From the NCBI GenBank assembly GCA_031841125.1, contig CM063108.1, positions 10,213,683 through 10,277,682 on the forward strand: DNA of 64,000 bases, given 5' to 3'. Below are positions 20,801 through 58,800 of this stretch, in pieces. The DNA comes from Acanthococcus lagerstroemiae. Its lineage: Eukaryota; Arthropoda; Insecta; Hemiptera; Eriococcidae. Both the position numbers and the translations under genes were made by a program. Positions within the stretch are counted from its first letter, which is position 1. Each line of letters opens with the position of its first letter. The notes below the pieces were generated by a model. The model searched no databases, was not told the origin of the DNA, and was given only the letters and a program-made list of their open reading frames with translations.

Positions 20801-23800
20801 TTTTAGCGAAAATCTCAAACGATACCAAAGGATTTTATTTGAAATCATCGAGAAATATCTCTGATGATTTTTGAAGCATTTCTTCAGAAAAAAGGTTCTA
20901 TGATTTCCAGAGATTTTTATCGGAAAATTTTGGGTTAAATTACCGATGATTTTCGAAGAATCTCATCAGAAATTTCTGGGAAAATCTCCAAGAATTTCCA
21001 AAAATTTTATCAGAAATCTTTGAGAACAATCTCTGATAATTTTCGGAGAATTTCATCGGAAATCTTCAGAAAGTATTTCCGGTATTTTCCAGAGATTTTC
21101 TTCAAAAATCTTCCGATGATTTAAAAAAAAATTTTGAAAAATATCTTGGAAAAATTCAATGGTTTTTGAAGAATTTTATCGAAAATTATCAGGAAAAATC
21201 CCCGATGATTTCCAAAGAATTTCATTGGAAATTTTTGGGAGAAAATTCCGAAGATTTTCGAAGAATCTCATCGAAAATCTTCAGGAAAAATTTCCAATGT
21301 TTTCCAGAAAATGTTTATCAAAATTCTTCGAGAAAATTTTCCGATAATTTTTGAATAGGAAATACTCGGGGTTTAAGCTTCGATGGTTTTTGAAGAATTT
21401 TATCGAAAATCTTCAGGAAAAATCTCGGATAATTTCCAAAGAATAATTTCATTGGAAATCCTCGAGAAGAGTCTCCGATGATTTTTAAGGAATTTCATCG
21501 GAAATTGTTGGAAAGAAATTCTGGTAATTAGAAGAAGCTCATTGGAAATGCTTAGAAAAAATTTTCAATGTTTTCCAAAAAATTTCCAGTGATTCATCGA
21601 GAACATTTTCTGATAATTTTTGAAGAATTGCATAGGAAATATTCGGGGGGAAAACTCCGATGGTTTTTGTAGAATTTTATCAAAAATCTCCAGGGAAGAT
21701 GTTCGATAATCTTCGAAGAATTTCATCAGAAATTTTCGAGAAGAATCTCCCCAATGATTTTTAAGGAATTTCATCGGAAATGTTTCGAAAAACATTCCAA
21801 TAATTTTCGAAGAATTGAGACTATTTCTCACTCATGCAATGGAATCAGAGATTTTTTCCGAAGATCTCTTATAAAATTTTTCGAAAATCTGAAATTTTTT
21901 CTGAAGATTTCCGACGAAGTCCTCTGAAAATTAGGGGAGATTATTTTCTATAAGATTTTCAATGGCATATTTTGAAATTATCGGCGATTTTTCTCAAATT
22001 ATTTCCGATAAAATTCTTTGAAAATTGTGGGCTAATTTTCGAAGAATTTCATCAAAAATCTTCTGAAACTAGTGAAAAGTCCCCTGAGTACAACTATGAC
22101 AAACGTACGATTGAAAAATTTACTAATGGTGAATTGTAACAAAGATATATGTGACAGAATAAACTTGATTTTGTTGTAATACTTTTCTATTGACACTGAT
22201 ATTACTTTTTATTCAAATATATAAAATTTGTACTTATTACATCACAGTTACGTCAACATTCAATGCAAAAAAAAAAAAAAAAATATTTGGCAATTTAGAA
22301 TTTTTATTTGGCACTTTTTTACCCGACCCCCCCCCCCCCAGAAAAATTCATTCGAACCGCCTCTGCGCCAAATTGCCGTTTTCCTCCTTATACTATCACA
22401 GCAACTCAACCATCCAGCTTTATCATCCAAGTGTACATGAGAAAAATTGTGCTATTTCACAGTTGCTGTCAAAAAGGATCATATTTTGTGAAGGAAGAAA
22501 AGTGATCGTTAGGTTTTCTTTCGAGTGAGCGTATTTTTTAAATCCGAGTAATTAATGTTGCATATTTGTATTCAGTACCTACTCCTACATTCAAAGGAAA
22601 ATTTTGAAATCTTAGAAAGTTTTGTAAACCTGCTTGTAGCGACTTTAAAAGTACGGGCGTATTAAGAATAGCCAAAACACATCATAAAACACGCAATATT
22701 CTGGTTTGTATTTTTTTTTTTTTTTTTTTGGACAGATTTACGACTGTTGCTCATTCACTTCTGATCCACAAACGGACACGTTTTCATTGATCAACGTTCG
22801 GACAATACCTCAAGCTCGTGTCGCTCAACTATCAAATTTATCCACTGCATGCCGACCAATGTTCTGGCCAACGTGTTCGAACGTGGATCAAAATGCAATT
22901 CCCAGACACTCACTACTCAGCAGTAAATTTCAGGAAAACAAAAAGACCTTTCAAATCATGTTTCCTAGGTGCCAGTAACAACATTCCGAGCCTCAAACAT
23001 CAGCTTAATTCATTATCTTCGGGAAAATTTCAAAAGTGACCCACGAATGGTACTTCACCATCATTCACCTTTGCGTTTTTTTTTTTTCAGGCATGGATTT
23101 TTGATTTCGGCTTTTTTGTTACCAAAGTAATCTTACTATGGATGAGCAAATTATTTTTTTGCGACTATAAACCATTAACGTGCACGAGGAATTACTGATA
23201 ACGCAAAAATAGGAAGAAACGAATAACGCCGGATCAATGCGATTTGGAGTCAAATTCAATTTTTTTCGAAGTTGAGATTTTGGTATAATTGGAAAGGTAA
23301 TTTCGCATACTTCATCGAAGAAGAAATTCCTTTCCAGTGATACGTAGTAACAAAAATCTAATTTTCGGGGGGGGGGGGCTGGAGTTGTCTCCAAATCGCA
23401 CTAACCCAACGATAAATAAAAACAACATTTTTAGGGGGCAAAACGATATACTATTGCCCATTAACTCGACATGGAGGGTCGCTCCCATAATTCCCGCCTA
23501 AATGCATCTTGTTCAAACATTTCGAGAGAAAATGTACGAGCACGTACCATTAACTGCGACGGAGTGAAAGCAGCACAAAAAGCTGGTTTGGAATTAGGAA
23601 CATGCGCCGTTTCAAATGCACACATCGTATACATTTGTTCAACATCATCTAAAATCAGTGGAATAGTTCAAAGTGGAAATTCATTATTGTCACTTGTCCA
23701 GAAACTCGCGGCTAAGATTTTCATATCATTATAAAATTTGGGAATCGTGTAGGCTCAACATACCGAGTGACAAAGGTTCCTTGAAGCCGAGACGGTTACT

Positions 23801-35159: not shown

Positions 35160-37110
35160 CAGGTTTTCAAGTTACTGGCCTACCTATCTTTCCTTTTCTT
35201 TGCAGCGTATCCATAGTTGAGTACTTTTACTCCCTATTTGTTGCTATCTGCCCTCGCCAGATGCCCCACATATTTCCACTTAAATTGTTCGACATTATAT
35301 CCTATATCCTCGCCTCCAGCCATTTCGTACAGTTTTTCATTTGAAATTTTGTCTACCCATCGTAGTCCTAGAAGTTTCCTCAACATAGATCTGAACGTAA
35401 TTTGTAGCTTCACGATTTGTCTCCTGTAAGGGAACAGGTTTGTACTCCATACTTGAGGGCTGGTACCGTTGAGCTATTTAGTGCTTCCATTTTGAGGAAG
35501 GTGTTGAAATTCCGGCAAAAAATACATTTTAATGCCCAGAGGTTGTTCCACCCCTGTTTAATACGCCCTCATAATTCCTTTATCTCTTTCTTCGAAACTA
35601 ATAATCTGTCCCACAGATATTCGATTCTGTTACCTCTTCTATCTCTTGCCCATCGATTATTAGATTTTTTCTTTCCACTCTTCTGATTATTTTTGATTAG
35701 CTACCATTCAGTTTGAGGCCAGCTTTTTTGCATTCCCTCAATAGCTTTTCTGCCATTTTCTTCAACTCCTTACTATTTTCTGTAAATAAGATAATATAGT
35801 TTGCGTACCTTAAATTACTTAGAAATTCTCCATTTATTTTTAGTCCCCTTCTTTTCCACTTCAGATTGCGAAATACATCTTCCAAAATGCAGTTGAAGAG
35901 GTTTGGCGACAAGGTATCCCCTTGTTGAACTCCGCTCCCAATTTTGAATTCCCTCCCTTTGCTTTTAAGGCTAGCTCTTGCACTCGAATTTGCATAGCAA
36001 TTCTGTATATGACTTTAATAAACCCACTTTCAATTCCCTTATTTTCCAGTGCTTTTAACATATACTTATGATCCACTGAATCAACTGCCTCATGAAAGCC
36101 TATGCAAAATATTTCAATTTCTACATCATATTCGTGTGTTTTTTCAATAATTTGGCTCACAACGAAAATATTCTTTACAGTTGAGAAGCCTTTTCTGAAT
36201 CTCGCCTGTTCACTCCCCTGATGATTTGAATCCAGATGGTTATACATACGTCTTTTTAAGACTGCCATACATGCTTGAAAGATGTTCGATGTTAAGCATA
36301 TTGGCCTGTAATTTTCAATGTGTTCCTCCCTCCTTGTTTGTGTAATAATATTATTTTGGCCAAGTTCCACTGTTTTGGACATGTTTTCATAATTCCGATT
36401 TTGTTGAATATTTTAACCTGGTGTGGCACTCTCTGATCGCCAAACCTTTTCAGCATTTCGTTCGTAATTCCATCCGGTCCTGGGGCTATGTCATTTTTCA
36501 GTCTACATTTTTAGTACGTATTCCACTTCTCTCTCCATTATTTCCGGGATTTCTTCCTCCTTTCACCCTCCAGTTTTTGCTATTTTCATGAGCTCGTTTT
36601 GCTCGCGGTAGAAGTCCTCGTAAAAAATTGTTGCTGTCTCTAGAATTTGTTCTTGATTCTTAGTCACTTTTCCTGTCTGATCTTTTAGCTTTAGCATAAC
36701 GTCTCTCCCGCCATCGAGTTCGAGCCTAACTTTTTTGGTGGACCAACTTTTTTCCAAAATATCTGGAATTCTTTTCTAATCATATTTCTTAATATGTTCT
36801 CTAACATTTTTCTTCACCAATTTTTGTATTTTAGTTCGCTTAGGTTTGTCCAATGGTGTTTTATTTCTATTTTTCCAAAGGTTATTCTTCCTGATTCGAG
36901 AGTCTATTTTGAAAGCTTATCCCTGGTTTTCTCTTTAACCCTCGTCACTCCAAACTCTTCAACCGTGTTTTTTAAAGCTTGATCCATACTGTCGTAAAAA
37001 TTTTCCTCGACTTTCATTTCCTCTTGCACTGATTTTAGTTTCTGGCGTGCGTCCTCTTCCTTTCTGACTGGGATAATCCGCCTTCTTCTCCCTTTACCCT
37101 TCCTGTGATT
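35160..37110 (-). mobile_element. LINE body with RT domain, frame-broken
   Basis: On the minus strand, from high to low coordinates: IAPGPDGITNEMLKRFG near 36500 (pre-RT motif), YRPICLTSNIFQACM near 36300, FIKVIYR near 36020, then the catalytic block near 35800 where FADD-type residues read YANY, and a GLKLNGS motif. Several frameshifts and stops separate them. The altered catalytic box and broken frames mean no active enzyme. It is flanked by satellite on both sides. Confidence 0.85.
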
Positions 37111-41393: not shown

Positions 41394-42470
41394 TAACCTT
41401 GGATAGGTGGGCCATGCCAGTTATCCTGCCCATTTGAGGGCATAGGTTTCCACCATCTCTCTCCATATGTCACTGTCTCTCGCCAATCTTATCCATCTTC
41501 TCCCGAGCTCCTTGAATTCGTCTCTCCAGCGTAGCATCAGTCGTCCCCTTGCACATTTATGGCCATATGGGGTCCAGTCGGTTGCAGTCTTATGCCATTT
41601 GAAATTCTTTTCCCTCATCAGGTGCCTCGCATATTTCAATTTTAATTTTCTGATTATGTAGCCAATATCCTTTACATTAATTCTTTCTTTGATGTCCAGA
41701 AGCTTAATTTTGTCTTTTAATTTGATTTTTAGGATGTTCCTAAACATTGAATTTTGCATAACTTTTAACTTCTTTAAATGTCTTCTAGCTATTGACCACA
41801 TCTGGGCCCCATGTGTTGCCACTGGGAGCACACAGGTACTTACGATTCTTGCTTTTGTTTTAATTTTCATGTTGCTTTTAAAAATATGTTTTTGTGCCCA
41901 ACATGCTTTCCATGAGTTATTTATACAAATTTTAATTTCCTTATTACTTATGTTTTTGAAAGATACAGTTTGTCTTAAGTACTTGTATTCATCGACTATC
42001 TCTAGTTCTGCTGCGCTGGATCAAAGGTATTTGTCCTTTTTCCCATCTTTCGTCATAATTTTGGATTTCCCCAGGTTGATCGATAATCCTACATTAGCCC
42101 CTTGTTGTGCCAAATCTTCTATCATTATATTTATATCTTTACTGTTTTTACCTATTAATACGATGTCATCGGCAAATCTGAGATTATTAATCTTCACGCC
42201 ATCTATCTTCAGCCCGTAACTATCCCAGTCCAATTTTCTGAAAAGATCCTCCACAGTACAGCATTAAAGATGTTTGGTGACACTGGATCTCCCTGTTTGA
42301 CTCCCCTACCCACCTTAAATATATCCCCCTTTTTTGTCCAGTGAAATATATTATGCTACCGAGTTTTGGTATAAATTTTCTAATAATATTTTCGGGAACT
42401 CCTTGCGATGCTAGAGCATTCCAGGCGCTATGGTGACTGATAAATGGAATCAAAGGCCTTATTAAAATTG
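41390..42470 (-). mobile_element. LINE 3' half: RT palm and C-terminal domain
   Basis: On the minus strand from 42470: a QGVPENIIRKFIPKL block and KRGIYL (RT region), LRFADDIVLIGKNS near 42170 with an intact FADD catalytic box, SINLGKSKI near 42080, then the C-terminal segment with ARHLMREKNFKWHKT, RGRLMLRWRDEFKELG and RDSDIWREMVETYALKW ending near 41421. Two long frames (42254-42021 and 41870-41421) are separated by frame damage. It is 5'-truncated and ends in the AAT tail. Confidence 0.88.
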
Positions 42471-42740: not shown

Positions 42741-43813
42741 AGCGTCAAAGAATCTAATGATAAACCAAATCAAAATAATTATAAAAATTATAAAGAATTA
42801 ATTACGCAATTCAGCGAAGTTTTTAAAGGAATAGGATGTGTCCCAAGAACGTGCAACATTGCATTAGAACAACAATTTATACCCCATATCGACGCTCCCC
42901 GAAAAATACCTTTCAAATTACGTGCACCACTTAAAAAGGAATTAGATAAAATGATAAAGTTAAAAGTAATACAAAAACTTGCGTAACCCACTGACTTTGT
43001 AAGTTCTCTGGTAGTCGTCGAAAAACCAAATGGCAACCTTAGGGTATGCCTCAATCCAACAAAATTAAATAAATATATAAAACGATCACATTTTCAATTG
43101 CCTACCCTCGAAACAATACGAGCAGACCTGAATAACTCAAAAATTTTTAGCAAATCAGATGCTAGCTCAGGTTACTGGAATATAAAACTGGACGAAGACA
43201 GTGCTAAGCTCTGCACATTCAACACCTCTTTCGGAAGATATTGCTTTCAAAGACTCCTGTTCGGAATTAGGTAATTGTGCTCAGGATATATTTCAGGCAA
43301 AAATGTCAGAATTGTTCGGAGACATCGAAAGTGTCTCTATAAGTATACATTGATGATCTGTTAATACATGCCCCCAACAAACTTTTACATGACCAGATCC
43401 TTGAAAACGTATTAAAAAGGGCTAAACAAGTCAATCTTAAATTAAACCTGGAGAAAAGCGAATTCGGAGTGAACGAGGTTAAGTATCTAGGACATTATTT
43501 CTCAGAGAAAGGCGTATCCAGCGACCCTGAGAAAATCAAAGCCATTATTGAAATGAGTTCACTAACAAATATTCAGGAGCTATAACGATGGCTCGGAATG
43601 GTTACTCATTACTTAAGCCCATTTATACCAAACTTATCCAATCTCACGTCCAAAAAAATCGCATGGCACTGGAATAATAAACACGAATTAGAAATAAAAA
43701 ATCTGAAAAAAATGATCACAAATAATCCTGTTCTTATGCATTATTATCCAAAAAGACCTATAACTTTATCATGTGACGCTTCTAAAAACGCTAGTAGTAT
43801 GGGCGTCACTTGA
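42741..43813 (+). pseudogene. Gypsy-1 reverse transcriptase and start of RNase H (broken)
   Basis: Continues the pol of Gypsy-1. Motifs in order: VFKGIGCVP near 42815, a VEKPNGNLRVCLNPTKLNKY block near 43015-43075, FSKSDASSGYWNIKLDED near 43150-43200 (first catalytic Asp), FNTSFGRYCFQRLLFGI near 43220-43265, a YIDDLLIH catalytic box near 43345, LEKSEFGVNEVKYLGH near 43455, and an RNase H start LSCDASKNASSMGV at 43770-43812. There is an in-frame TAA near 42985 and at least two frameshifts. It is cut at 43813, where the capsid-like block begins. Confidence 0.85.
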
Positions 43814-44018
43814 TACCAATTTCCCCCAGGGTCCCCCACTGGGTATTATAGGCTATGTCTCAGACTAGTCTACCCCCTCCCCCTAAGGTCCCCGCCCCAC
43901 ATCGCCATTTTGCCTCTCCTGCTGTACATATGAAACAGTTGATTGGTTAAAAAAAAAAAACACTATATATAGGAGGTAAGTTTAGTTAAAAATAAGTTCA
44001 TTTGCATTCAAAGCGACA
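43814..44018 (+). promoter_or_regulatory. Leader with TATA-like motif before the capsid-like gene
   Basis: CTATATATAGG at 43963-43973 lies about 50 bp before the ATG at 44019. The same core recurs before the next start codon (45053-45065). Upstream is C-rich and then T/A-rich DNA. The left boundary of the virus-like block is somewhere in 43813-43960, and no terminal inverted repeat was recognised. Confidence 0.45.
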
Positions 44019-45094
44019 ATGGGTGACAATATCATTGACAGTGTCGAGTATTACGATTACAGGCCTCCTGTATCCGAAAATTTTAATGATTTAGGAACAG
44101 AGTTTCCTATAATTGTTTATAATGAGGACATAGTGACCCAGCCTTGTAAGAGTTTACTAGTAATCAGTGGTAAAGTAACGTTGAGGCAAATAAAAACTGA
44201 TTTTAAAAATGATAAAAATGCTGTAGAGGCGGATATTATGGAGACTGTTACAGATTATAAACCTGAAGATTTTCGTCTCCTTAATAATGGTATCTTGAGA
44301 TTTTTCGAACGGATTGACTACTATATAGGTGATAGTAAAATTGATAGCATAAGAAAACCTTGTATCTCTACAACAATGAAGGGATTAGCGTGTTTTGAAA
44401 ATGATTTAAAGTACAGTAATACGGGTTGGTCTGTCAGAAATCAGGAAAATATAATGAATGAGCAGGGTTACTTTTCAGTTTGTATACCTGTGTCCATAGT
44501 TATGGGCTTTTTCGAGGATCATAAGCAATTTCTATTTCGTATTCCGCAAAAATTAGTGTTCTACAGGAGTTCTAACCACTTTCACACAGCGTTCTATCTA
44601 AATCCAGCAGTATACCATCATTCGATTTCAGGTGTCAGTGGTCCTGATTTCGTTTGGGATATACCCACGGCTTATTCGCGCACTAAATATATTTTAATTG
44701 GGTTCCAGTCTCGAGGGAAAGATACTTTTGAACTGAGAGATCTAGAAAATGTCCAGGTAGTGCTCAACAATAATGTCTATTACCCCCGTGAAAGACTAAA
44801 TTTGAATGTTGCGGAAAGAAGGTGTTCCAATCTTTACCAAATGTTCAAAAAGTTTAAATCGGCCTACTATAACGAAAATGAAGATGAAATTGAGCCGTTA
44901 ATAGATTACAATACTTTCCTAACGCGATTGATTCTTCATACCAGCCGGATGTTATAAAAGAATCTTTAATTAATATTAAAGTGATTTTTAACTGGCGGTC
45001 AGTTTTTCCGTCTTCTCTGGATATACATATCGTTTTAATTTCGGACCATAAAACTATATATAACCCTCTGAATAATCGGGTTGTTTCTGGTTAA
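44019..45094 (+). pseudogene. Major-capsid-like protein (double jelly-roll type), one frameshift
   Basis: An open frame of 312 codons (44019-44957). Between about 44925 and 44940 the family-like reading moves to another frame and continues to a stop at 45092-45094, so the ancestral protein was about 355-360 residues. Motifs resembling virus-like capsid proteins found in invertebrate genomes are LLNNGILRFFERIDYYIGD followed by a STTMKGL turn, a GFFEDHKQFLFRIPQKLVF strand region, and a downstream ISD motif in the shifted frame. I recognise the family pattern only by memory of such loci, so the capsid assignment is inference. It would form the icosahedral shell of an adintovirus/Polinton-like particle. 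The damage implies it is no longer made in full. Confidence 0.6.
45053..45065 (+). promoter_or_regulatory. Second TATA-like motif
   Basis: ACTATATATAACC lies about 32 bp before the ATG at 45097 and within the 3' end of the capsid-like reading. It closely repeats the motif at 43963-43973, which suggests gene-by-gene viral promoters. Confidence 0.4.
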
Positions 45095-45096
45095 AA

Positions 45097-45238
45097 ATGG
45101 ACTCTGAAGAAAAATCTACCGTCTATTTTCCGTCCTTTTGAGGTTTAAGAAGAAGAAGAAGAAGCGTAAGTCGTTGTGTAGACTGATGTGTTGGATAAAG
45201 TATAGAAGGACCCAGCACAGGGGAAAACGTTCAGTTTG
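45097..45238 (+). pseudogene. Short ORF followed by a Lys/Arg-rich frame
   Basis: The ATG at 45097 opens only 14 codons. From about 45140 another frame reads a very basic stretch (six Lys then RKSLCR, later YRRTQHRGKRSV) to a stop at 45236-45238. A single frameshift would join them into a small basic protein. Small basic core-like proteins are common in DNA viruses, but no specific family is recognised. Confidence 0.3.
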
Positions 45239-45254
45239 ATTTTAATCGCTATGA

Positions 45255-45696
45255 TATAAGTTTACTATCGATTTCCAAGCTTTTAAAATTAATAATAATC
45301 AATTTGTGGTGAAAGAGTACGCATTGTCTTATCAAGCCACTTGAGGGACTGTAGGTAGATTACACGTGTGCAAAAATTCACGGCATTCGTTGGGACGACG
45401 GTTATACTACGTTTTTTGACGCTGTGAAACTACTGAAAGATTGTGTGCGAGGGGCGTCTATAGTGTACATTAAAGGTAGCGAACGCGCCGAATATTTGAG
45501 GGAATTACTACAGTTTAAGGTGGTACTGTGCAATTTAGATACACTTAATTGTCCACGTACTGTAGATCTGGTTTCTACATCTAAATTTTCAGGGTGTTCT
45601 TACCACAAACAGCGTTATTTGCCAAAGAATACACGCATTAGGTGTGCCTTAAAAAACGCCGTGATCTATAAGGATTGGTTCAGGAAAAATAAATAA
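45255..45696 (+). pseudogene. Conserved virus-like gene of unknown function (D..KE and WDDG motifs)
   Basis: The N-terminal part (45255 to about 45350) reads IDFQAFKINNNQFVVKEYAL. A frameshift or stop follows near 45345; the rest reads HGIRWDDGYTTFF near 45380-45420, then IVYIKGSERAEYL, NCPRTVDL and Cys/His residues up to 45696. The spaced Asp and Lys-Glu at the start resemble the first motif of DnaQ/RNase H-fold exonucleases, but this is only a suggestion. Its stop overlaps the next start by one base (TAATG), typical of compact viral coding. Confidence 0.4.
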
Positions 45697-46416
45697 TGAG
45701 TTTCCAAATTTCGTTAAACAGTAACAAGTCGACTATTCACCGCGAGTACCAGCCAGAGATCCGGTTAGATGGTGCTTATGAAGTGGGTTTAAAAAGTTTT
45801 GTGACCTACAACTCTATCCCGAATATTTCAAAATCATTAAAAAACAACATATTTGCTGTTAGAGATTATACTACCAGCACTCTGCTCACTCTAGAGATAG
45901 CTGATGGTACATACGAGCTCGATGATATTATTAATGTTGTATATTAACTAGTACAAAATTCGCTGGGACTGGTCTAAAAATGTTTTTGAATAAAAACACA
46001 TTGAGGGTGGGAGTATTCTGTTCTAAATGTAGCGTTGACTTCTCAGTTAAAAATTCAGTTGGTTATATTTTAGGATTCGGTAATACACGCATTGTCCCCC
46101 AAAACGCTGTCGAATATTCCGACCTGCATATCAACATTTTTCCTATAAATACAGTGAGAGTTAAATGTAACCTAATCAAGTGTAACATTGACGATAAAAA
46201 GCTTCATGACAACACGTTGTACGACTTTCCATTAAACAACAAGGTTGGTGAGAAAATTACAGAACGACCAAATAATATTTCTTATTACAGGGTGAATAGT
46301 GAAGAAATAATACACGCCTTATTCGTGACTATACCGTAGTAGATCAAGACGGTAAAATAGTCGACTTTAGAGGCGAGAAAATTTCGATTACTTTAGCTTT
46401 TAGACCGGCTAAATAA
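45696..46416 (+). pseudogene. Penton/minor-capsid-like protein, two frameshifts
   Basis: Three successive frames form one family-like reading: 45696-45947 (YEVGLKSFVTYNSIPNI, then a G-TYELDDI motif), 45980-46339 (SVGYILGFGNT, SDLHINIFPINTVRVKCNLI), and 46340-46416 (VVDQDGKIVDFRGEKIS). The L-x-G-x-Y/W-E-V-G-L and D-Q-D-G-x-x-x-D-F-R-G-E patterns occur in proteins proposed as pentons or minor capsid proteins of Polinton-like and adintovirus elements. Breaks lie near 45947 and 46337. Assignment is by pattern only. Confidence 0.5.
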
Positions 46417-46422
46417 AAAAAG

Positions 46423-46957
46423 GAGGAGTATATCAGATTAGGTAAGGCGTTAGCCGCCAAGTATGAAGAAATAAAACGAGGGAAAATTAATAGACAAATC
46501 AGTTTAGAAGAACAGTTTGCCCCATTATTGACACCTCTGCGTAATATTGATAAGCAACTGAATCAAAAACCTCCTATAGAACGTTTTGAAAAAAAAACAA
46601 GAAGAAGATATAGAAATGGGTGATAAAATTGAAATGGTCGGGAATATAGCTTACAAATATCTAAAAGATTACAACCCTAACAAACCAGAACTAGGTATTC
46701 AAATTAAAAATGATCATTTGTACATAGGTAACGAACCTGTATGGGTTGTCAATAATAATCTGATTTTTCAAGATGGTAAAGTTATCCGTGGGACAGAGGG
46801 CCTTTGGCATTTACTAACACAGCAATCAGACTCTACACAATATAATAAGACCGATTTGAAAAAATATAAAGAAATCTTAGCAAAGGGGCGGCCTACTAAT
46901 GAAGGGCCTATAACTAGAGGAAAAATCAAGAGGGGTGGGGGTTACAAAAAATACTGA
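46423..46957 (+). pseudogene. GTEGLWHLL-motif virus-like protein, frameshift at an A9 run
   Basis: The first part (46423 to about 46590) reads LGKALAAKYEEIKRGKI and a PLLTPLRNIDKQL coil-like segment. The frame changes in the run of nine A at 46589-46597, and the second part (to 46957) reads GTEGLWHLLTQQSDS, YKEILAKGRPTN and a Gly/Lys-rich end. G-T-x-G-L-W-x-L-L followed by a Y..IL segment recurs in multi-gene virus-like loci of invertebrates. Function is unknown; structural or scaffold roles are possible. Confidence 0.45.
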
Positions 46958-46965
46958 CAAATACA

Positions 46966-47180
46966 CCTGTCGAATATGTCTATTGGAACACTAGAGACGA
47001 ACTCATGAAAAGACTATATTTATATACTAGTAGGTGAATTAAATGCAGGCAACACCAATCCTCATTTAGTTAATGAACTTGTGAACATACAACAAGAACT
47101 AGCTGAAGAAGATGGATTACAGACAAGAAAGAACTCAAAAAATACTCAAAATGTTCCCTCAACCCGTGCAAAAAAAGGAT
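46966..47180 (+). pseudogene. Companion segment YVYWNTRDELMKRL
   Basis: After the GTEGLW frame ends, EYVYWNTRDELMKRLYL is followed in a shifted frame by a VGELNAGNTNPHLVNELVNI block. These look like the C-terminal part of the same or an adjacent small viral protein. It is broken by stops near 47035. Confidence 0.35.
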
Positions 47181-47189
47181 AAAATAGGG

Positions 47190-47804
47190 AGAGGCTTGAT
47201 CAATACGTTGATTAATAAATTGCCTGTCGAATGCCATCTACCCGGGGGATACCAATAATATGCTGGTCCTGGAACAAATTTAGATTTAAAATTGGAGAGA
47301 AATGTAAAGCCAAAGAACAAACTCGATGAAGCTTGTATGCACCATGATATCAGTTATGCACAATCCGATGATTTAAAAGATAGGCATGAGGCTGATTATA
47401 AGCTAGAGCAGGATTCGTGGAAACGTGTTACAGCAGGCGACTCTGATTTAATGGAAAAACTCAACGCTTGGCTGGTGACTAATGTTATGAAAGTTAAACA
47501 AAAAATGGGTGCAGGGTTACAATCTGAAACAAAGAAAATACCAAATTATGTGAAATATCCCGTAAATTTAGACAATACCCAGCATGAACTGACTATGAAT
47601 TCAAAAAAACCTATAGTTATTCAGGTCAAACAGGGTCGTACTAAAAATTCTGTAATGAGTAACACGTATCTACCATTAACACGTAAACAAATCACTAAAA
47701 TTCATAAAGGTGAGAGAATTAGGTTATCACTCGATCAATTAAAAAAAATAAAATCTGAGGATTTTTACCAGCAGTATTGGCGAAGACTACCACACCACAG
47801 ATGA
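47190..47804 (+). pseudogene. Parvovirus-type phospholipase A2 protein, stop in the calcium loop
   Basis: One frame carries LPGGYQ, an in-frame TAA at 47256-47258, then YAGPGTNLD (calcium-binding loop), LDEACMHHDISYA (catalytic His-Asp pair, near 47322-47360) and HEADYKL. A region with VTNVMKVKQKMGAGL and a terminal LPLTRKQITKIHKGERIRL block follow. YxGPG, HD..Y and AD..L are the diagnostic order of the viral PLA2 domain found in parvovirus VP1 and in adintoviruses, where it helps particles leave endosomes. The ORF from 47292 is open to 47804. The stop shows decay. Confidence 0.65.
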
Positions 47805-48929
47805 TTGCCAGGACTCTCACCATTCCAATATTTTCTAGCTGAGTTCTCTTACTTTGGTAGCACTGAGTCCCCAACTCTGGCTACAGGTCCAATGAGAGCA
47901 CCACTCTCTCCCTGCAGTGTTACTAAATGACAGAGTTAGGCCGCCTCCAACTGTGACAGGGTTTGCAAGGCCCCACCCACTGGTCCGACCAATCTGACCC
48001 CCGGTACACCTGGCCCGGCTCCCCTGACCAGAAGCACCGACCGTCTTGCACGGCATCCCCCTACATGAGTTGCATGATAGCTCCATCATCCGGCAGCTAC
48101 CCGACCAATTCCCCTGACTGCTGGTAACCCATCACTCTGGCTACCCACTCACGCAGTCAGGCCCCAGCCCCTCACGGCTGTCCACCAGGTACTGCCAGTC
48201 CATTGGCTTTCCATACCATCACATTACCAACCAAGACAACAAGACTCAGGCTACCCCTATACCACAATTACCACCTTGGGCCCCTGTGCACGCGCCACGG
48301 CAACTACCTTCGTGTACCGATCACAGTTCCACAGGCATCAGGTATGACAACCAACATTGTCTACCAATCCCATCTCTTCGAGGCGACTCTTTCGCTCCTT
48401 CAACACTGCTCGTCGCTCTCTTACTGAAACCATCATACTGTCCGCTCTATAGTAACGCTAAATAATCTATGACTAATCTAAATAGTGTACGATACCAAGC
48501 AGGTCCAGGCCATACTCCGTGAGAAACCACTATACTCAGTGAATAACTCACCTCACTTGTCAACGCGCGAAATATCTAACTTTTTTAATCTACTATTTGA
48601 AGAAACGCACTATCCGATCACTTAGGCTCGCATATACTCTGATCGCCGGTCACCATTTAACAATTGTGATTGTAGGCTGCGACGACCCTTAGGAGAAAGC
48701 AGCCCTCTCATGCCACTTCTCCTTTATATCACCAAACCGGATGTACACTTGTAACGATGAACATCCACCTTACGCGACCTAGTCTATTCATAAAATCGTT
48801 CGATCTCTCGCTAGTCAGTTTGTTACTTTTTTGCGTGTATAAAAAATGGACTGTAAGGGCTTCTCCGTCTTGACAGGGGTTCTCATTTACAGCGAGCATA
48901 AACGGCGAGTTACTGGCTACAAAATATAC
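47805..48929. other. Non-coding C-rich DNA, possible 3' LTR of Gypsy-2
   Basis: It lies between the virus-like block and Gypsy-2 pol. On the minus strand it follows the pol end directly, where a 3' LTR is expected. No second copy exists in the window to prove this. Open frames here are shadows. Confidence 0.3.
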
Positions 48930-51655
48930 TCACATAATATGTACAACTGTTACAACTCGGCCATCCTGTAGTCCACCTCGCCCCCGAGGTGACGGATCAA
49001 TTGTGGATTGGAGCAGGGAGTGGATGAGCATCATCAGTTCCATCCCCTTCATCTCTACTGCTGTCACCATCGTCACTGCTGCTAGACCCCAGACTGCCCA
49101 CTCGTTTGATTTTGTCGGCTGCCCAGACACTTTCGTATTTCCTGCCCTCTCTCCCTTGTCACCAACCACATATCAGTCATTGCCTAGCACCTTTCGAATT
49201 ACATAAGGCCCCCCGGAATGGTTTGCGCAACTTTTGACTGCCAGGCATCCCTAATGCTGTCTTCTGGAGCATCACCAAGTCCCCTACTTGGTACTGCTCC
49301 GCAGGACGTTTCTTTCGGTCGTATTGGGTCTCCTGCTGCTTCTGGGCTTTGCGGATGGTACATGCAGCTTCCTCTCGTTCTTCTATGATCTCCTCAACTA
49401 CGCGCGATGTTAATTGCACCTCATCCTGTAATGCTGCGTCTTCTCCTCCTCTGGGCTGGTATCCTAGCAGTAGCTGACTCGGGGTGCGTTTAGTTGACTG
49501 GTTTACCGTATTATTGAGGGCAAACTGTATTGCCCTAATCTGCTCATCCCATTTTTTCTTGTCCGTGACCAGGGTCATTAACCTATTCATTAATGCCCTG
49601 TTCATCTGTTCTACTTGGCCATTTGCCCTTGCACAGGTAACAGCTACCTGGATGTGGCGTTTTTGGTTCTGATCACAAAAATTGGCAAATCTTCTAGCAG
49701 TAAAAGCTGTCCCTCTGTCAGATATAATCACCTGTAGTGTACCATAAGTGGCAAACAAATCTCTCATGTACTCTATTACTGCCTTAGTGTCTGTAGATTT
49801 CACGGCTCTGAGAAATGTAAACTTAGTAAATCCACACACAATCACAATGATGTGTTTATTCCTCCTTGATGATGCAGGAAAAGGTCCTAAATGATCAACG
49901 TGGATGGTTTGCAAAGGTACACTGGCCTTAGGTATTGGGTGAAGTAAACCTTGACCTTTGCTCCCATATCGCTTTGCAAATAAACATGCGACACAACATT
50001 TTGTAAATTGGTCCACATATTTTCTCATTTTAGGGAACCAATAGACGTCGTTAAGCTTTAATAGAGTCTTCTCTGTCGCTCCATGATTTGTGGTCTCATG
50101 TGCCACCTTCACTACTTGGTATTGCATGGATCGGGGTACCACCCGCATCAACCCTTGAGTAGTCTTCCTATAAACTCGATCTGCTCTTAGAGCATACTCT
50201 CAATGAATATGTCTCTGGTCCTCTGTTTTTGGTGTTAGAAGCAGGGTCTCTCTTAAACATACTACCTGTGGATCAGTATTCTGTGCTGTACCAACCCAAT
50301 CCTCTGCTTCAATTCGTAGCACAAAGTCTGGTGGTTCTTTGGGTATTGGGTTTCTACTTAATGCATCAACATGTTGCATCTTTTCACCTGGTCTATGCTT
50401 AATGTCAAAATCAAACTCGGACATCCGCACCCACCACCAATATATTCTCCCAACCAACTCTTTCTGCTTCTGGCAGGCTGTTATCGCGTTACAGTCAGTA
50501 ACTATTGTGAACCTGTTATTCAATAGATAACTCCAATATTTACATGCAGTCTCAACCACTGCAAGTAATTCTAACTCATAGGAGTGGTAGTTTGGTTCTG
50601 ATCCTGTAGTCTGTCGACCATAATAAGCTATAGGGTGGAATTTCTCATCCTCCTTGCGTTGTAGTATCATCTCGGCTAAACCCAAACCACTAGCATCTGT
50701 ATGCACTTCTATCTCCGCATTTGGTTTATATAGACTTAAGATAGGACGACTAATCAATCTACTTTTTAGCTTTTGAAAGGCAGCTTCTTCCTCTCTCTGC
50801 CAATCCCATCCGCTATCTTGCTTCAGTAGCTTGGTTAAGGGTTTTGCTATAGTTGCATAATTTTCCACAAAATGTCGGAAGTATCTAGTGAAGCCTAAGA
50901 ACTGACAGACATTTTTCACTGTTGTAGGCTGGGGAAATTCCTCCACTGCCTTTAACTTCTGAGTACCTGGACTCACTCTTCCATTCTCAATTTCAAATCC
51001 TAGGAAAGACACCTTCCTGGTCATGAATCTACATTTGGCTGGGTTGAGTGTAAAACCAGCTTCACATAGAACATCTAGTACTCTTTTCAATCTGTGCAAT
51101 GCTTCCTCCTCAGTAGCTGCATGTATCAACACATCATCTAAGTACACTGCAGCAATCTCTTTTACTGGTTTCAGAACTCTATGCATATATCTTTGAAACA
51201 CCCTGGGAGCGTTAGTCAAACCAAAAGGCATTTTATTGAACTTGTACTGGCCAGTTGAAGTCACAAAAGAGGTCAACACCTTAGATTCTTCAAGCATCGG
51301 GATTTGATAATACCCCGACTTAAGGTCCAGACTATGGAACACAATTGATCCGCTGAAGCGGTCCACTAATTCATCTATCTGAGGTAAAGGATAATTATCT
51401 CTCACTGTTTTCGAGTTCAATTTCCAATAATCTATGCAAAGTCGCATGTCACCAGTTTTCTTCCCAACTAGAAGAGCTGGTGAGGAATAAGGGGAACAGG
51501 ACTCTCAAATAACTCGGCACTTCAGCAATTCCTCCACCATGCTGCTCACTGTTTGCTGCTCAATTGGAGCCATTTTATACGGTCGTGCATAGAATGGTGT
51601 ATCATCCAATAGGGTGATTTTCATTTCCACATAGATCTTTAGCCGTCTTCCCCCT
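48930..51655 (-). pseudogene. Gypsy-2 pol: RT, RNase H, integrase (few lesions)
   Basis: Ty3/Gypsy polyprotein on the minus strand. From 51650 downward: DDTPFYARPYK, an in-frame TGA near 51508, then LCIDYWKLNSKTVRDNYPLP, LDLKSGYYQIPM, FGLTNAPRVFQRYM, catalytic YLDD near 51135, FLGFTRYFRHFV, RNase H with HTDASGLGLAEM, HRPGEKMQHVDALSR, an in-frame TGA at 50200-50202, integrase HHCC zinc finger (HETTNHG...CCVAC), catalytic VDHLGPF near 49900, SDRGTAF near 49720 and GQVEQMNR near 49600, then a GGPYVIRKV GPY/F motif near 49215 after a frameshift. It is the best preserved element here. Gag and protease are missing because the next element's LTR begins at 51661. Confidence 0.93.
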
Positions 51656-53860: not shown

Positions 53861-55500
53861 ATGAACAAAGAACGGAAATTGCCTGAGCAAAAAGGTACCT
53901 GTGCCAAGAAAACTACCATCGGCAAACTGCCACCTACCGACCCGCCAAAGAGGGGACGCTTTGCACAGCGGTTTGACTTCTCCCGTTTGCCATCCGACCC
54001 TGAAGAGCTGAGAAAGCACCTCGAGATACTCGTCAGCAAGGCAGACAAAGATGAGGAGAACCGCAACCAGGCGCGTGAGAACGCCGAAAGAGAAGCTCGT
54101 GCAAAAGTGGAAGCAGCGCTCGCCAGAGCTGAGGATCTTGAACAACGCCTGCAGCCGACCCACAACCAATAGGTAGTCAAATTGACCAATCATTTTAAGA
54201 CTTTGTTGGACAGTCAACAAAATCAGAGCGCCCGCGATCTCAAGCTTATGCGTAATGAATTTTCCTCGCGATTTGAGGAACTGAAAACAACGACCTCAAA
54301 AATACCAGCGTCAGGCACTGAGAGTACGCAACTAGAATTCCCGCGTATACCACTGCCTGATAGTCAACCACCACAGACTACCTACTGCAATCAACCTCTA
54401 CAACAGAAAGAGCCAGTACATAAATCCGTAGATTTCCTACCTACATCACAATCTACACAAATGCCACCGTTTGAATCCACAAGAAACAACATTCCGCGTT
54501 ACGTGTCGCGCCAGGAAGAGTCACCAGATTTGGGGGATAATTCCGATGGGTCCAATTGATCAACCAATCACCAGCATTTCCAACGCATGCCTCTGACACT
54601 ACCGCGTTGTTACCGCCGTACTCATTCTGGTGCTGACTCCATGGCCAAGATGGAGGAGGACTCCTATATGTATCAAAGCCGCCACTACACCGCCAATATC
54701 ACGCGCAACTTGACCCATCGCAATACCCGAGCAGAAATTGGACATCTGAACTTTTCAAAAGTGCCGCAGATGTTCAAGGACAAAGAGATACTCGAACCAT
54801 TACATGGACGCAAAGACCGCCGAACACCTGTCGAGTTTGTAACCTTTTTCACTGAGAGGATCGGTGACTTCTGCTCCTCATTATCGGAACGGGTGAAACG
54901 GTTCCATAACCTAGTCATCAGTGGGTGCAAATGGATATCACTGTCCATGGAACACGGTGAAAGCTTCGAAGAGACAGTACATGCATTCATAGATGTGTTC
55001 TGGGCAGTATTAGAGCAAAAGGCACTAGTATTCGAGTTCGATAACGCGTCCTATGACCCATACTGTGAAGAACAGCAAATGTTCTTATACTGGTGGTACC
55101 GCAAGCTGGTACATTGAACCGGCAGAGCTTTTTTCTGACCTCCGCAGAAAGATGCCGTTGGATTTGCAGCCCGCTGTATGTGGCGTTTGCGGTCCGAATT
55201 ACCGCAAGCAGTGCACATATTTCGCACTTTCGACATTTTCGCCGCATCTAAATTTGTCAACCAAAATGTGGAGCGTTGGCCAGCGAACCTGAAAGCCGGA
55301 GACTTCCAAATCGACCACACTATGTTCCAGAAGGCTGATGCCCAGGGGCCGAATTTCAAGGCCTGGTCAGCAAAAGCAGCTGAAACTGTAAAGCGAGGAC
55401 TGCGAGGATTGATCGAGTATCAAAAAGATCTGACCCGATTCTGTAACCTGCAAGCCAAACTGCAACCTACAGCTGATGTAATCAGCGTAATGCAGATAGG
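53861..55500 (+). pseudogene. Gypsy-3 gag (multiple stops and frame changes)
   Basis: The ATG at 53861 opens a Lys/Glu/Ala-rich coiled-coil-like N-terminus (EELRKHLEILVSKADKDE). One frame continues across an in-frame TAG at 54170-54172 and TGA at 54557-54559 to a capsid-like segment at 54700-55117 with a Trp- and Phe-rich core. The reading appears to move to another frame at about 55090 (ELFSDLRRKMPLDLQP) and back near 55190. No CCHC knuckle is visible. Confidence 0.75.
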
Positions 55501-55878
55501 TTGGAAGCCTAATCCAGCTGGCAAGATCTGCTGTATGGGCAGATCACTGCACTTCGAAGCCCTGATTGATATGGGCAGCCCAATCTGCATTCTATCAGCT
55601 GAACTGTTCGAATTTATCAAGAATGCTAACCCATATGAAGACTTTGCCACTACCACCTGTGCGCCGCTGCAAATGTCTATGCTCACAGGGGAAAGAGTGT
55701 AGATGTCCAAGACCGCAGAAATTCCATTCAACTGCTGCATTGGTGGACTACCATCATACCTCTTCCGGCAACGCTTTTGCGTTACTGCTCACACTCGTGT
55801 GGCCTGCCTTATGGGCCGAGACTTCATTAACCGGTATCTGATAGACATCAGTCTACCAAAAAAAAAACACGACTGATA
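55501..55878 (+). pseudogene. Gypsy-3 protease
   Basis: The same frame as gag reads FEALIDMGSPICILS near 55555-55600, a retropepsin active site in which D-T-G has become D-M-G, followed after an in-frame TAG at 55700-55702 by MGRDFINRYLIDI, matching the I-L-G-x-D-F block of retroviral-type proteases. The stop and the changed active site show it is dead. Confidence 0.7.
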
Positions 55879-58800
55879 GTGGAGGCAGTGACACCGCACT
55901 TTCAGATACCGCTAGAACATTGTGATCTAGCCGACCAACCCATGATTGAGGCGGCGGTTCCGCAGCCTTCAATGAGCGCTGAGAAGAGCAAGACCCAGAT
56001 CAATTTCACGAACGTGACAGCGAGTCCACAACCCATACCATCGACAACCAAATCATCTGCGACTTTAACCTCGGACTACCCATTAATCTTTAAAGTTCCT
56101 GAACCAACTGCTTCTATCGTGCCTAGAATTCGAATCCGAGTGGCAGATGAGATTATGGCAGTGCGTTCTTACACTGCTAGTAATGTCACCCGGGGCACGG
56201 AGGATCTGACTACCCAGAGAACAATAGCGACTGCCAAAACTGCGGCAGCCCAGGGCAAGGACACACCGCTTCCAGAAACGTCTACCCGGGGCATGAATAA
56301 AACCAGCTGGTGGCTGGAAAACTTCCTGCGGAACCATAAGGAAGTCTTCGAGGAAAGGATTGGCCGGTGTTCTGTATATGAACACAAGTTCAACATCACC
56401 AAGCCCGGTATAGTGCGCAGGAAGGATTGTCCAGTGCCTAAACGCAAAGAAACTGCCGTGGCAGCCACCATAAACGAGTGGATAAGAGAGGGCATCTTGG
56501 TGGACTCAGACGCCCTGCACTGCATCCCTCTCATCGCAATTAAGAAGACAGATGACACTAACCGAGTCTGCGGAGACTTCCGGGTGCTTAATGGTTTTAT
56601 ATTGCCATAAACCATAAAGTCCCGCGTTTGGACCACCTCAAAACGAAATTCCGCAGCAGCCGAATTTTCAGCAAGGTTGATTTCCGATAAGGGTTCCTAC
56701 AGATACCGCTCAATGCAGAATCGCAGCCCTATTGTACCATAGTTTTCAACGGCAGACCGCTCAAATTTACCCGAGTCAGCTTTGGAACCAATGACTCAAT
56801 GGCAGCATTCATCGCCGCGCTACAGAGAGTGCTGCCAAGGGACGGAGGAATTCACCGTATCCTATGTAGATGACTGCATCATCTACTTGGAAAATGAAGA
56901 CGACCATAGAATCCACTGCCCTAAAATTGCTGCCGCCGGGATGACATTGAACTGGACAAAATGCCAGTGGTTCAAAACCACCGTACTGTTCCTAGGATGG
57001 ATTGTGGACGCTACTGGAGTGCGTTCCAACCCAGACAATGTGAGGAAAATGCTCAAAATTCCACCGCCCTCCAACTGTACCGATATTATGGCGTTCATGG
57101 GCAGCATCAACTTCTACCGCACTAATTTACCTGAATTGGCAGCAGTAGCACAACCAATTACTTCTCTCATCTCCGCCAAGACACCTTTTGTCTGGGGAGA
57201 ACCGCAAACTGCCGCCTTTCAGCGAATTAAACAGATGCTGGCCGACCATATTCAGCAAGCATATCCTCATCCGCAACAGCCATTTCATGTTGTGGTATCA
57301 GGAACAACGAAAGGCCTGGTCAGCTCAATACACCAGCTCGACGAACAACAGCGACCACTGCCAATTGCGTTCGATGGCTGAGCTCTACGCGGTGCTGAGC
57401 TGAACTACCCAGAGGGAGAATTGGAGCTGCTCAGTCTTGTGCATACATTGAAAAAATATTACTACATACTGCATGGGGCCCACATCATTGTACACGGATC
57501 TCATGCCTAGTCCGACCTACTGCGACTGCGACTGTACTGGCCTACCCGCGTCCTCAAATTTCAAACGTTCATCCGAGAATTTCACGTCGACTTCCAGACT
57601 GTGAAAGCACCTACAAACAAATTAGTCCGTTTTCACGAACTGCTTGTCGGTAAATATTCGGACCGATATACTGTGACCTCAGATCAGAACATCACCTACT
57701 TTGGGGTGGAGCCCACCGAAGAGTTGGTGCGAGTGTTTGATAATTTCGCAATTGCCCAGTCAACGGATGCGGAGATCCAAGAACTGCAGCAAGCCGTACC
57801 GCGCCAAATTACCACCGAAGATGGACTAATCTACCGCCGCGGATGAGACAGAATCCTGCGACTATTGGTACCAGCCAATATCCGCGGGGAACTCATCAAT
57901 TTCTACCACCGGTTCTATGGGCATATTGGAATCGAAAAGACGATTACAGTATTGCTACGACACTTCTCATGGCCGGCCCTGCGAGAACAAGTGTATGAGC
58001 TGATTGCGGCCTGCCAAACCTGCAATACATGCAAGAAAAATAAACGGCGAATTCAAACTCACTACATACCAATCGAAGTCCGTGAGAAAGGCCAGGCCGT
58101 GGCAATCGACTTTTGGGGACTGCTACCAACAGCGTGGGGAGGACTCAACCTGATCTTAGTAGTCATGGACGTCTACACCCGCTACACCCGCCTTTTTTCC
58201 GCTCCGTAAGGCAGGCACCGCAAATGCCATTAAAGCGATCGAATCCTTCATCCAGGACTTCGTCCAAGTCACCGCACTCATCAGCGACAACCAATCTTGC
58301 TTCCGGTCCGAGCTTTGGGAAAGCCACTGGAGCAAGAGAAAAATTGAAATACGGCATGTGGCGCCGTATAATCCTGCTTCTTCACCCGCGGAACGAGTAA
58401 TGCGAGTATTAGGTGATCGTTTCCGCGCCCACTTGCGTGGAAATAAGCAAGGCAAATGGGTCGACCTAATCTGGGATGTAGAAGCATCGATCAAAGAGAC
58501 CGAACACCGCACTACACAGACCGCGCCAGTAGTGTTAGTCAAGGGCCGAGCACCCACTGATCCGCTGTCATCCCGCCTGCGAAAACCACCGCCAGTGGAC
58601 CTGATACAAACGAACGGCCAAGTCCAGAAGCGCCTTGATCAGGTTAAAACACAGCAAATGCAAAAAAAATCCGCCGATTCACCGCGAATTTGTTCGAGTA
58701 GGGGACCTAGTGTTTGTAAAAACACACCCCATCTCGAACAAAGAAAAGCATGTCATGGCCAACCTCTGTGAACCCGCCCGCGGGCCATACCGCGTAAAAA

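What the first reader, a model, noticed from the sequence alone, without database searches (positions are those of the whole stretch)
43814..47804. Fossil virion-gene block resembling adintovirus/Polinton-like viruses
Six adjacent plus-strand genes or gene remnants occupy under 4 kb with viral packing (TATA-led starts, a one-base stop/start overlap at 45694-45698). The set combines a capsid-like protein, a penton-like protein, a GTEGLW-motif protein and a parvovirus-type PLA2. No polymerase, integrase, protease or ATPase is seen, so it is either a capsid-only module or a truncated insertion between two retrotransposons. Sequence shows the motifs; viral identity is inference from family patterns.
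Basis: partly seen in the sequence, partly recalled or inferred. Interest (0 to 1): 0.88.

Follow-up and report, generated by a model that had tools for sequence, protein, structure and literature searches.

The report
Broken virus coat genes in DNA
A 4-kilobase stretch of this genome is a decayed leftover of a virus that once inserted itself, keeping recognisable genes for the virus shell and for an enzyme that may have helped it enter cells; such leftovers are known from many animals, so this is a new example of a known kind.

Summary
On the + strand, 44019 to about 47840 is a compact block of decayed genes: open + frames of 50 or more codons cover 88.5% of it, against a maximum of 51.1% in 300 shuffles.

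Both are broken by missing blocks, frame changes or an in-frame stop. The penton-like and GTEGLW genes have no database support.

No polymerase, ATPase or protease family was found in the pieces scanned; the one integrase core match belongs to a retrotransposon. I read the locus as a truncated virion module of the Polinton/Maverick supergroup. It cannot be filed as an adintovirus: replication genes are absent and the relation of its capsid to adintovirus hexons is unshown. New member of a known kind.

The parts
43962..43971 (+). TATA-like element ACTATATATA, starting 57 bases before the capsid ATG
   Evidence: 2 occurrences in 64 kb, 0.12 expected by shuffling
44019..44957 (+). Double jelly-roll major capsid (hexon) gene, main open frame, 312 codons; lacks about 44 internal residues (core strands) and a 7-residue loop that relatives have
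   Evidence: PF21738 E=1.6e-20; 45 homologs; alignment A1; intact relative models as a DJR capsid
44894..45094 (+). C-terminal part of the capsid gene, in another frame
   Evidence: tblastn of relatives to about 44924-45091, 51-61% identity in the five relatives printed; frame listed
45053..45062 (+). Second TATA-like element, 44 bases before the ATG at 45097
45097..45696 (+). Degraded second gene; clear open piece 45355-45696. Looks exonuclease-like from recall only
   Evidence: no convincing Pfam, NCBIfam, PHROGs, PDB or viral-contig support
45693..46416 (+). Penton-like gene, apparently in three frames (45693-45947, 45935-46339, 46303-46416)
   Evidence: identity inferred from position and a recalled N-terminal pattern; searches empty or without meaning
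46417..46957 (+). GTEGLW-motif gene, apparently in two frames (46417-46623, 46580-46957); a possible tail lies at 46918-47182
   Evidence: no family or locus match
47103..47258 (+). N-terminal part of the phospholipase A2-like gene, ending at an in-frame stop
   Evidence: tblastn of P0046 runs 47112-47792 through the stop at 57% identity; alignment A2
47259..47804 (+). Phospholipase A2-like core (GPGT loop, HD pair); the frame changes near the end and about 70 C-terminal residues of the nearest relative are absent
   Evidence: PF08398 E=6.7e-9; 27 homologs; family profile matches parvovirus VP1, E=2.7e-5
42987..43813 (+). Upstream neighbour: retrotransposon RT/RNase H remnant, not part of the block
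   Evidence: PF00078 and PF17919
49177..51504 (-). Downstream neighbour: LTR-type retrotransposon pol (RT, RNase H, integrase), not part of the block
   Evidence: PF00078, PF17919, PF17917, PF17921, PF00665

Best explanation
The block is a truncated, non-functional remnant of the virion-gene part of an integrated Polinton-supergroup DNA virus (Maverick/MELD-type) in an animal, probably arthropod, genome. Shown here: one gene belongs to the PF21738 double jelly-roll family, one is a parvovirus-type PLA2-like gene, both are broken, and the stretch between them is coding in origin. Inferred: in life the first formed the icosahedral shell, the penton-like gene its vertices, and the PLA2 breached an endosomal membrane during entry, with TATA-led transcription; the parent carried a replication module; deletion or later transposon insertion cut the ends off, leaving the block between a retrotransposon remnant that ends at 43813 and a breakpoint near 47.8 kb.
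Against: No PolB, viral integrase, ATPase or protease family was found in the pieces scanned, and no inverted repeats mark both edges of the block, so the parent element is inferred. The window's own capsid model is poor (pLDDT 70; no Foldseek match at E 0.001 or better, best 3e-3). Three of five genes are unidentified. No related locus was found in viral or bacterial/archaeal contigs. PMC5803895 states that its PLA2-bearing Sf Mavericks lack a homolog of the usual Polinton capsid protein PY, so the pairing of PLA2 with a double jelly-roll capsid is not documented for them in that paper.
Confidence: 0.86

Rival explanations
1. A narrower form of the best explanation: it is a decayed member of Adintoviridae (now Eupolintoviridae) proper, and only the polymerase-integrase half is lost.
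For: The gene set (DJR capsid, penton-like, PLA2) resembles animal polintons; insect Mavericks with PolB, integrase, ATPase and protease carry a PLA2 gene (PMC5803895, passages).
Against: Adintoviruses are defined by OTU-bearing PolB, chromodomain integrase and a BLAST-recognisable hexon (PMC11071296 section 16); none is shown here. The viral models listed share 7-12% identity with the capsid relative (50 rows shown).
Confidence: 0.4
2. Another narrower form: the parent virus had this capsid module but a different replication module, with no PolB or integrase, and this locus is a fragment of such a virus.
For: [quoted passage not shown] No replication gene is seen here.
Against: Absence in a truncated locus says little; no complete relative was available.
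Confidence: 0.17
3. The genes are intact in reality and the breaks are sequencing or assembly errors in a live or young provirus.
For: Some frame changes lie beside homopolymers (A9 at 46589; A8 at 47741 and T5 at 47762). Conserved capsid residues are kept.
Against: The capsid frame change, the two penton-like frame changes and the in-frame stop are not at runs of five or more. About 44 core residues of the capsid are missing as a block, and about 70 C-terminal residues of the PLA2 protein are gone.
Confidence: 0.05
4. The host kept the block as a domesticated capsid-only module.
For: The capsid frame is open for 312 codons, its internal deletions are in frame, and 61 of 64 covered conserved positions are kept.
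Against: Core strands and the C-terminus are lost from the frame, and the neighbouring genes are broken up over several frames.
Confidence: 0.04

Closest known systems
Pfam PF21738 double jelly-roll-like proteins (e.g. Parthenolecanium corni V9T40 proteins)
   Same: Same family by profile; 39 of 45 homologs align over 92-98% of the frame at 37-49% identity
   Different: Most relatives are about 400 residues; this frame lacks an internal block and its in-frame C-terminus
Insect Mavericks such as Sf Maverick 1/2 of Spodoptera frugiperda (PMC5803895, passages)
   Same: Carry a separate parvovirus-type PLA2 protein (CAP); P0070, named CAP of S. frugiperda, aligns to ours at 51% over 49% of the query
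   Different: Those are complete elements with PolB, integrase, ATPase and protease, and are said to lack a PY capsid homolog; whether their 404-residue ORF7 is this capsid family was not testable here
Adintoviridae, renamed Eupolintoviridae (PMC12451622, passages)
   Same: Similar gene set in outline: DJR hexon and penton; PLA2 in adintoviruses is recalled
   Different: Defining polymerase and integrase absent; hexon relationship unshown
Parvovirus VP1 unique region
   Same: PLA2 domain; profile match to AAV-type VP1, E=2.7e-5 over about 70 residues
   Different: Here in a block with a double jelly-roll capsid gene; no parvovirus coat or NS1 family among the matches

Membership tests
PF21738 DJR-like capsid family | Profile score above the curated cut-off | tested here: met
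   74 bits against 27
PF21738 DJR-like capsid family | Double jelly-roll fold | tested here: met
Parvovirus-type phospholipase A2 (PF08398) | Profile score and GPG loop plus HD pair | tested here: met
   36.3 bits against 23.9; motifs kept in A2, but the gene has an in-frame stop just before the loop
Adintoviridae / Eupolintoviridae | OTU-bearing family B DNA polymerase | tested here: not met
   No polymerase B or OTU family at E 0.001 in 208 pieces scanned (121 of the 133 pieces of 60+ aa at 34-58 kb; all 87 of 75+ aa elsewhere). The locus is truncated, so this bears on the locus, not on its parent
Adintoviridae / Eupolintoviridae | rve integrase with chromodomain | tested here: not met
   The one rve match lies in a minus-strand retrotransposon with RT and RNase H; no chromodomain family matched. 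Truncated locus
Adintoviridae / Eupolintoviridae | Hexon recognisable by BLASTp among adintovirus hexons | tested here: inconclusive
   No adintovirus reference set at hand; viral structure models listed share 7-12% identity with relative P0002 (50 of 1195 rows shown)
Adintoviridae / Eupolintoviridae | Penton protein | tested here: inconclusive
   Pieces open but no homolog, family or PDB match; the homolog search was limited by length
Polinton/Maverick supergroup | Packaging ATPase and adenovirus-type protease | tested here: not met
   No such family in the pieces scanned. Truncated locus
Polinton/Maverick supergroup | Terminal inverted repeats | tested here: not met
   12 short inverted pairs (16-30 nt, 70-88%) in 42800-49200, none at both edges of the block. 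Truncated locus
Parvoviridae | VP1 jelly-roll coat fused to PLA2, and NS1 | tested here: inconclusive
   No parvovirus coat or NS1 family matched. The 27 PLA2 homologs are 111-314 residues with no other Pfam domain listed, but that search admits only about 100-316 residues, and our gene is cut at its 3' end

The most novel reading that the evidence does not exclude
The block samples an undescribed animal virus lineage with a PF21738 capsid, a separate PLA2 and three unknown genes between them, whose replication module is not the PolB-integrase pair of polintons. PF21738 would then mark a sister group of adintoviruses rather than adintoviruses themselves.
Probability: 0.17. Interest if true: 0.6.

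Novelty: new member of a known kind. Interest (0 to 1): 0.34.

Why it matters
It adds one record of a capsid-forming DNA virus in what looks like an animal genome. It also joins, in one block, the Pfam capsid family PF21738 (not found in the held paper library under its accession, short name or full name) with a PLA2 gene and three unnamed genes, which makes the family's viral context testable in complete genomes.

Tried and rejected
Searching the window's own assembly for complete copies was the decisive step. The genome search was tried 15 times and did not complete.

Related loci: eight scans found none by tblastn (viral contigs; genome contigs, which hold bacteria and archaea). A tblastn of P0002 against phage records was empty.

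The penton-like piece had no homolog, but full-length relatives may lie outside that tool's length limit, so this is weak. PDB sequence searches of the capsid and PLA2 frames, the capsid profile, the penton-like piece and the GTEGLW piece (best E 1.3) gave nothing of weight. A PDB match of the second gene to 4fs7 (E 8.3e-5, no stretch passing on its own) goes with a sub-threshold leucine-rich-repeat match and was set aside as likely spurious; this is a judgement. Other sub-threshold Pfam and NCBIfam matches were set aside too. PHROGs gave none.

Retrotransposon or cellular gene origin was rejected: no such family passes its cut-off in the block. The sigma-70 scan found 27 sites against 14.6 in shuffles; it does not apply to a eukaryotic locus. 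Host identity: no Rfam match; not determined; arthropod is inferred from the names of homologs.

Papers: PMC8502044 and PMC11426020 are not held. Of PMC11071296 I saw passages and sections 13 and 16; of PMC5803895, PMC10675110, PMC8363768, PMC11071308, PMC4028283 and PMC12451622 passages only; of the rest, listings.

Rows dropped: 6 of 45 capsid homologs (P0039, P0041-P0045) were left out of A1 and A3; P0040 was also left out of the tree, which places the window sequence only in an unresolved group of 29 of 39 rows. 15 of 27 PLA2 homologs were used in A2. Of 318 stop-to-stop pieces of 60+ aa, the bulk scan took 208; pieces of 60-74 aa outside 34-58 kb and all pieces under 60 aa were left out. 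The 12 pieces of 60+ aa within the block were left out of it: eight + strand ones were scanned (two with slightly shorter starts), four antisense ones were not scanned. The bulk scan does not say which member matched; the second of two Integrase_H2C2 members was not traced.
Full report
WHAT WAS CHECKED. On the + strand from 44019 to about 47840 the DNA (GC 36%) is filled with open frames of one orientation: 88.5% of 44019-47842 lies in + frames of 50 or more codons, against 34.6% on the minus strand. In 300 dinucleotide shuffles the mean is 26.4% and the maximum 51.1%. With 80 codons the four figures are 74.2%, 0%, 3.9% and 23.5%. The stretch 45097-47111 between the two identified genes shows the same excess by itself (67.3% at 80 codons, shuffle maximum 37.4%), so the unidentified pieces are coding in origin as well. 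In two control flanks, 20 to 231 of 300 shuffles reach the observed value. The motif ACTATATATA occurs twice in the window, both times just upstream of a gene start in this block. The stop/start overlap at 45694-45698 is present.

THE PLA2 GENE. The frame 47259-47804 matches PF08398 at 36.3 bits (cut-off 23.9). 27 homologs were found, 111-314 residues long; the search admits only about 100-316. The window keeps the GPGT loop and the HD pair and 46 of 57 near-invariant positions covered (relatives' mean 93%); 5 of the 11 changes lie in the out-of-register tail. The gene begins at about 47112; an in-frame stop lies just before the GPGT loop, the frame changes near the end, and about 70 residues of the nearest relative P0046 are missing at the 3' breakpoint. 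A profile of the family matches parvovirus VP1 (E 2.7e-5). One homolog is named CAP of Spodoptera frugiperda. PMC5803895 (passages seen) describes CAP as a PLA2-bearing protein of two insect Mavericks with PolB, integrase, ATPase and protease, and says that these lack a homolog of the usual Polinton capsid protein PY; a 404-residue ORF7 of theirs has no named domain. That P0070 is this CAP is inferred from the name.

THE OTHER GENES. 45097-45696 (clear piece 45355-45696), 45693-46416 and 46417 to about 47100 appear to hold three further genes spread over several frames.

SURROUNDINGS. Upstream, 42987-43813 is a retrotransposon RT/RNase H remnant on the same strand. Downstream, 49177-51504 is a minus-strand retrotransposon pol with RT, RNase H and integrase. 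In 208 stop-to-stop pieces scanned against Pfam at E 0.001, six families appeared, all of retrotransposon type: 121 of the 133 pieces of 60 or more residues at 34-58 kb (the other 12 lie within the block; eight of these were scanned, four antisense ones were not) and all 87 pieces of 75 or more residues elsewhere, which gave no family. No inverted repeats mark both edges of the block. The host was not identified.

READING. The best account is a truncated, dead virion module of a Polinton-supergroup virus. What is shown: capsid and PLA2 family membership, the coding nature of the rest, the breaks, and no replication gene in the pieces scanned. What is inferred: shell formation, membrane breach by PLA2 at entry, the parent's replication genes, and loss of its ends. 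Two or three frame changes sit by homopolymers and could be sequencing errors, but the missing blocks and the in-frame stop do not.

PLACE AMONG KNOWN THINGS. PMC11071296 (sections 13 and 16 read) defines adintoviruses by OTU-PolB, mutually recognisable hexon and chromodomain integrase, and reports virion modules joined to genomes without PolB and integrase. None of the three features could be shown here, so I do not file the block as an adintovirus. PMC4028283 (passages) established a double jelly-roll capsid and a penton in Polintons; PMC12451622 (passages) renames Adintoviridae to Eupolintoviridae. Endogenous relatives are well known in animals: PMC10675110 reports 453 adintovirus-type integrations in ticks, all from integrase sequences rather than capsids (passages), and PMC8363768 reports three adintovirus-like genomes in Drosophila samples (passages). 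Two literature searches for the Pfam family found nothing (library limited to open PMC papers).

Noticed in passing
49177-51504, minus strand: A retrotransposon pol (RT, RNase H, H2C2 and rve integrase) split into two frames of 434 and 340 codons.
   Followed up: partly
54560-58771, plus strand: A run of long frames around an RT/RNase H match (56743-57378), perhaps a second decayed LTR retrotransposon.
   Followed up: partly
35861-36412, minus strand: A reverse transcriptase remnant just under Pfam's cut-off (28.1 bits against 29.6).
   Followed up: partly
41421-42020, minus strand: A 199-codon frame without a Pfam match that looks like the tail of a non-LTR retrotransposon (impression only).
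   Followed up: partly
P0065: A PLA2 homolog is named from a Spiroplasma ixodetis genome bin, probably host DNA carried into a bacterial bin (inference).
   Followed up: no
20943-21350: Diverged tandem repeats of period 46 and 92 (69-77% match).
   Followed up: no
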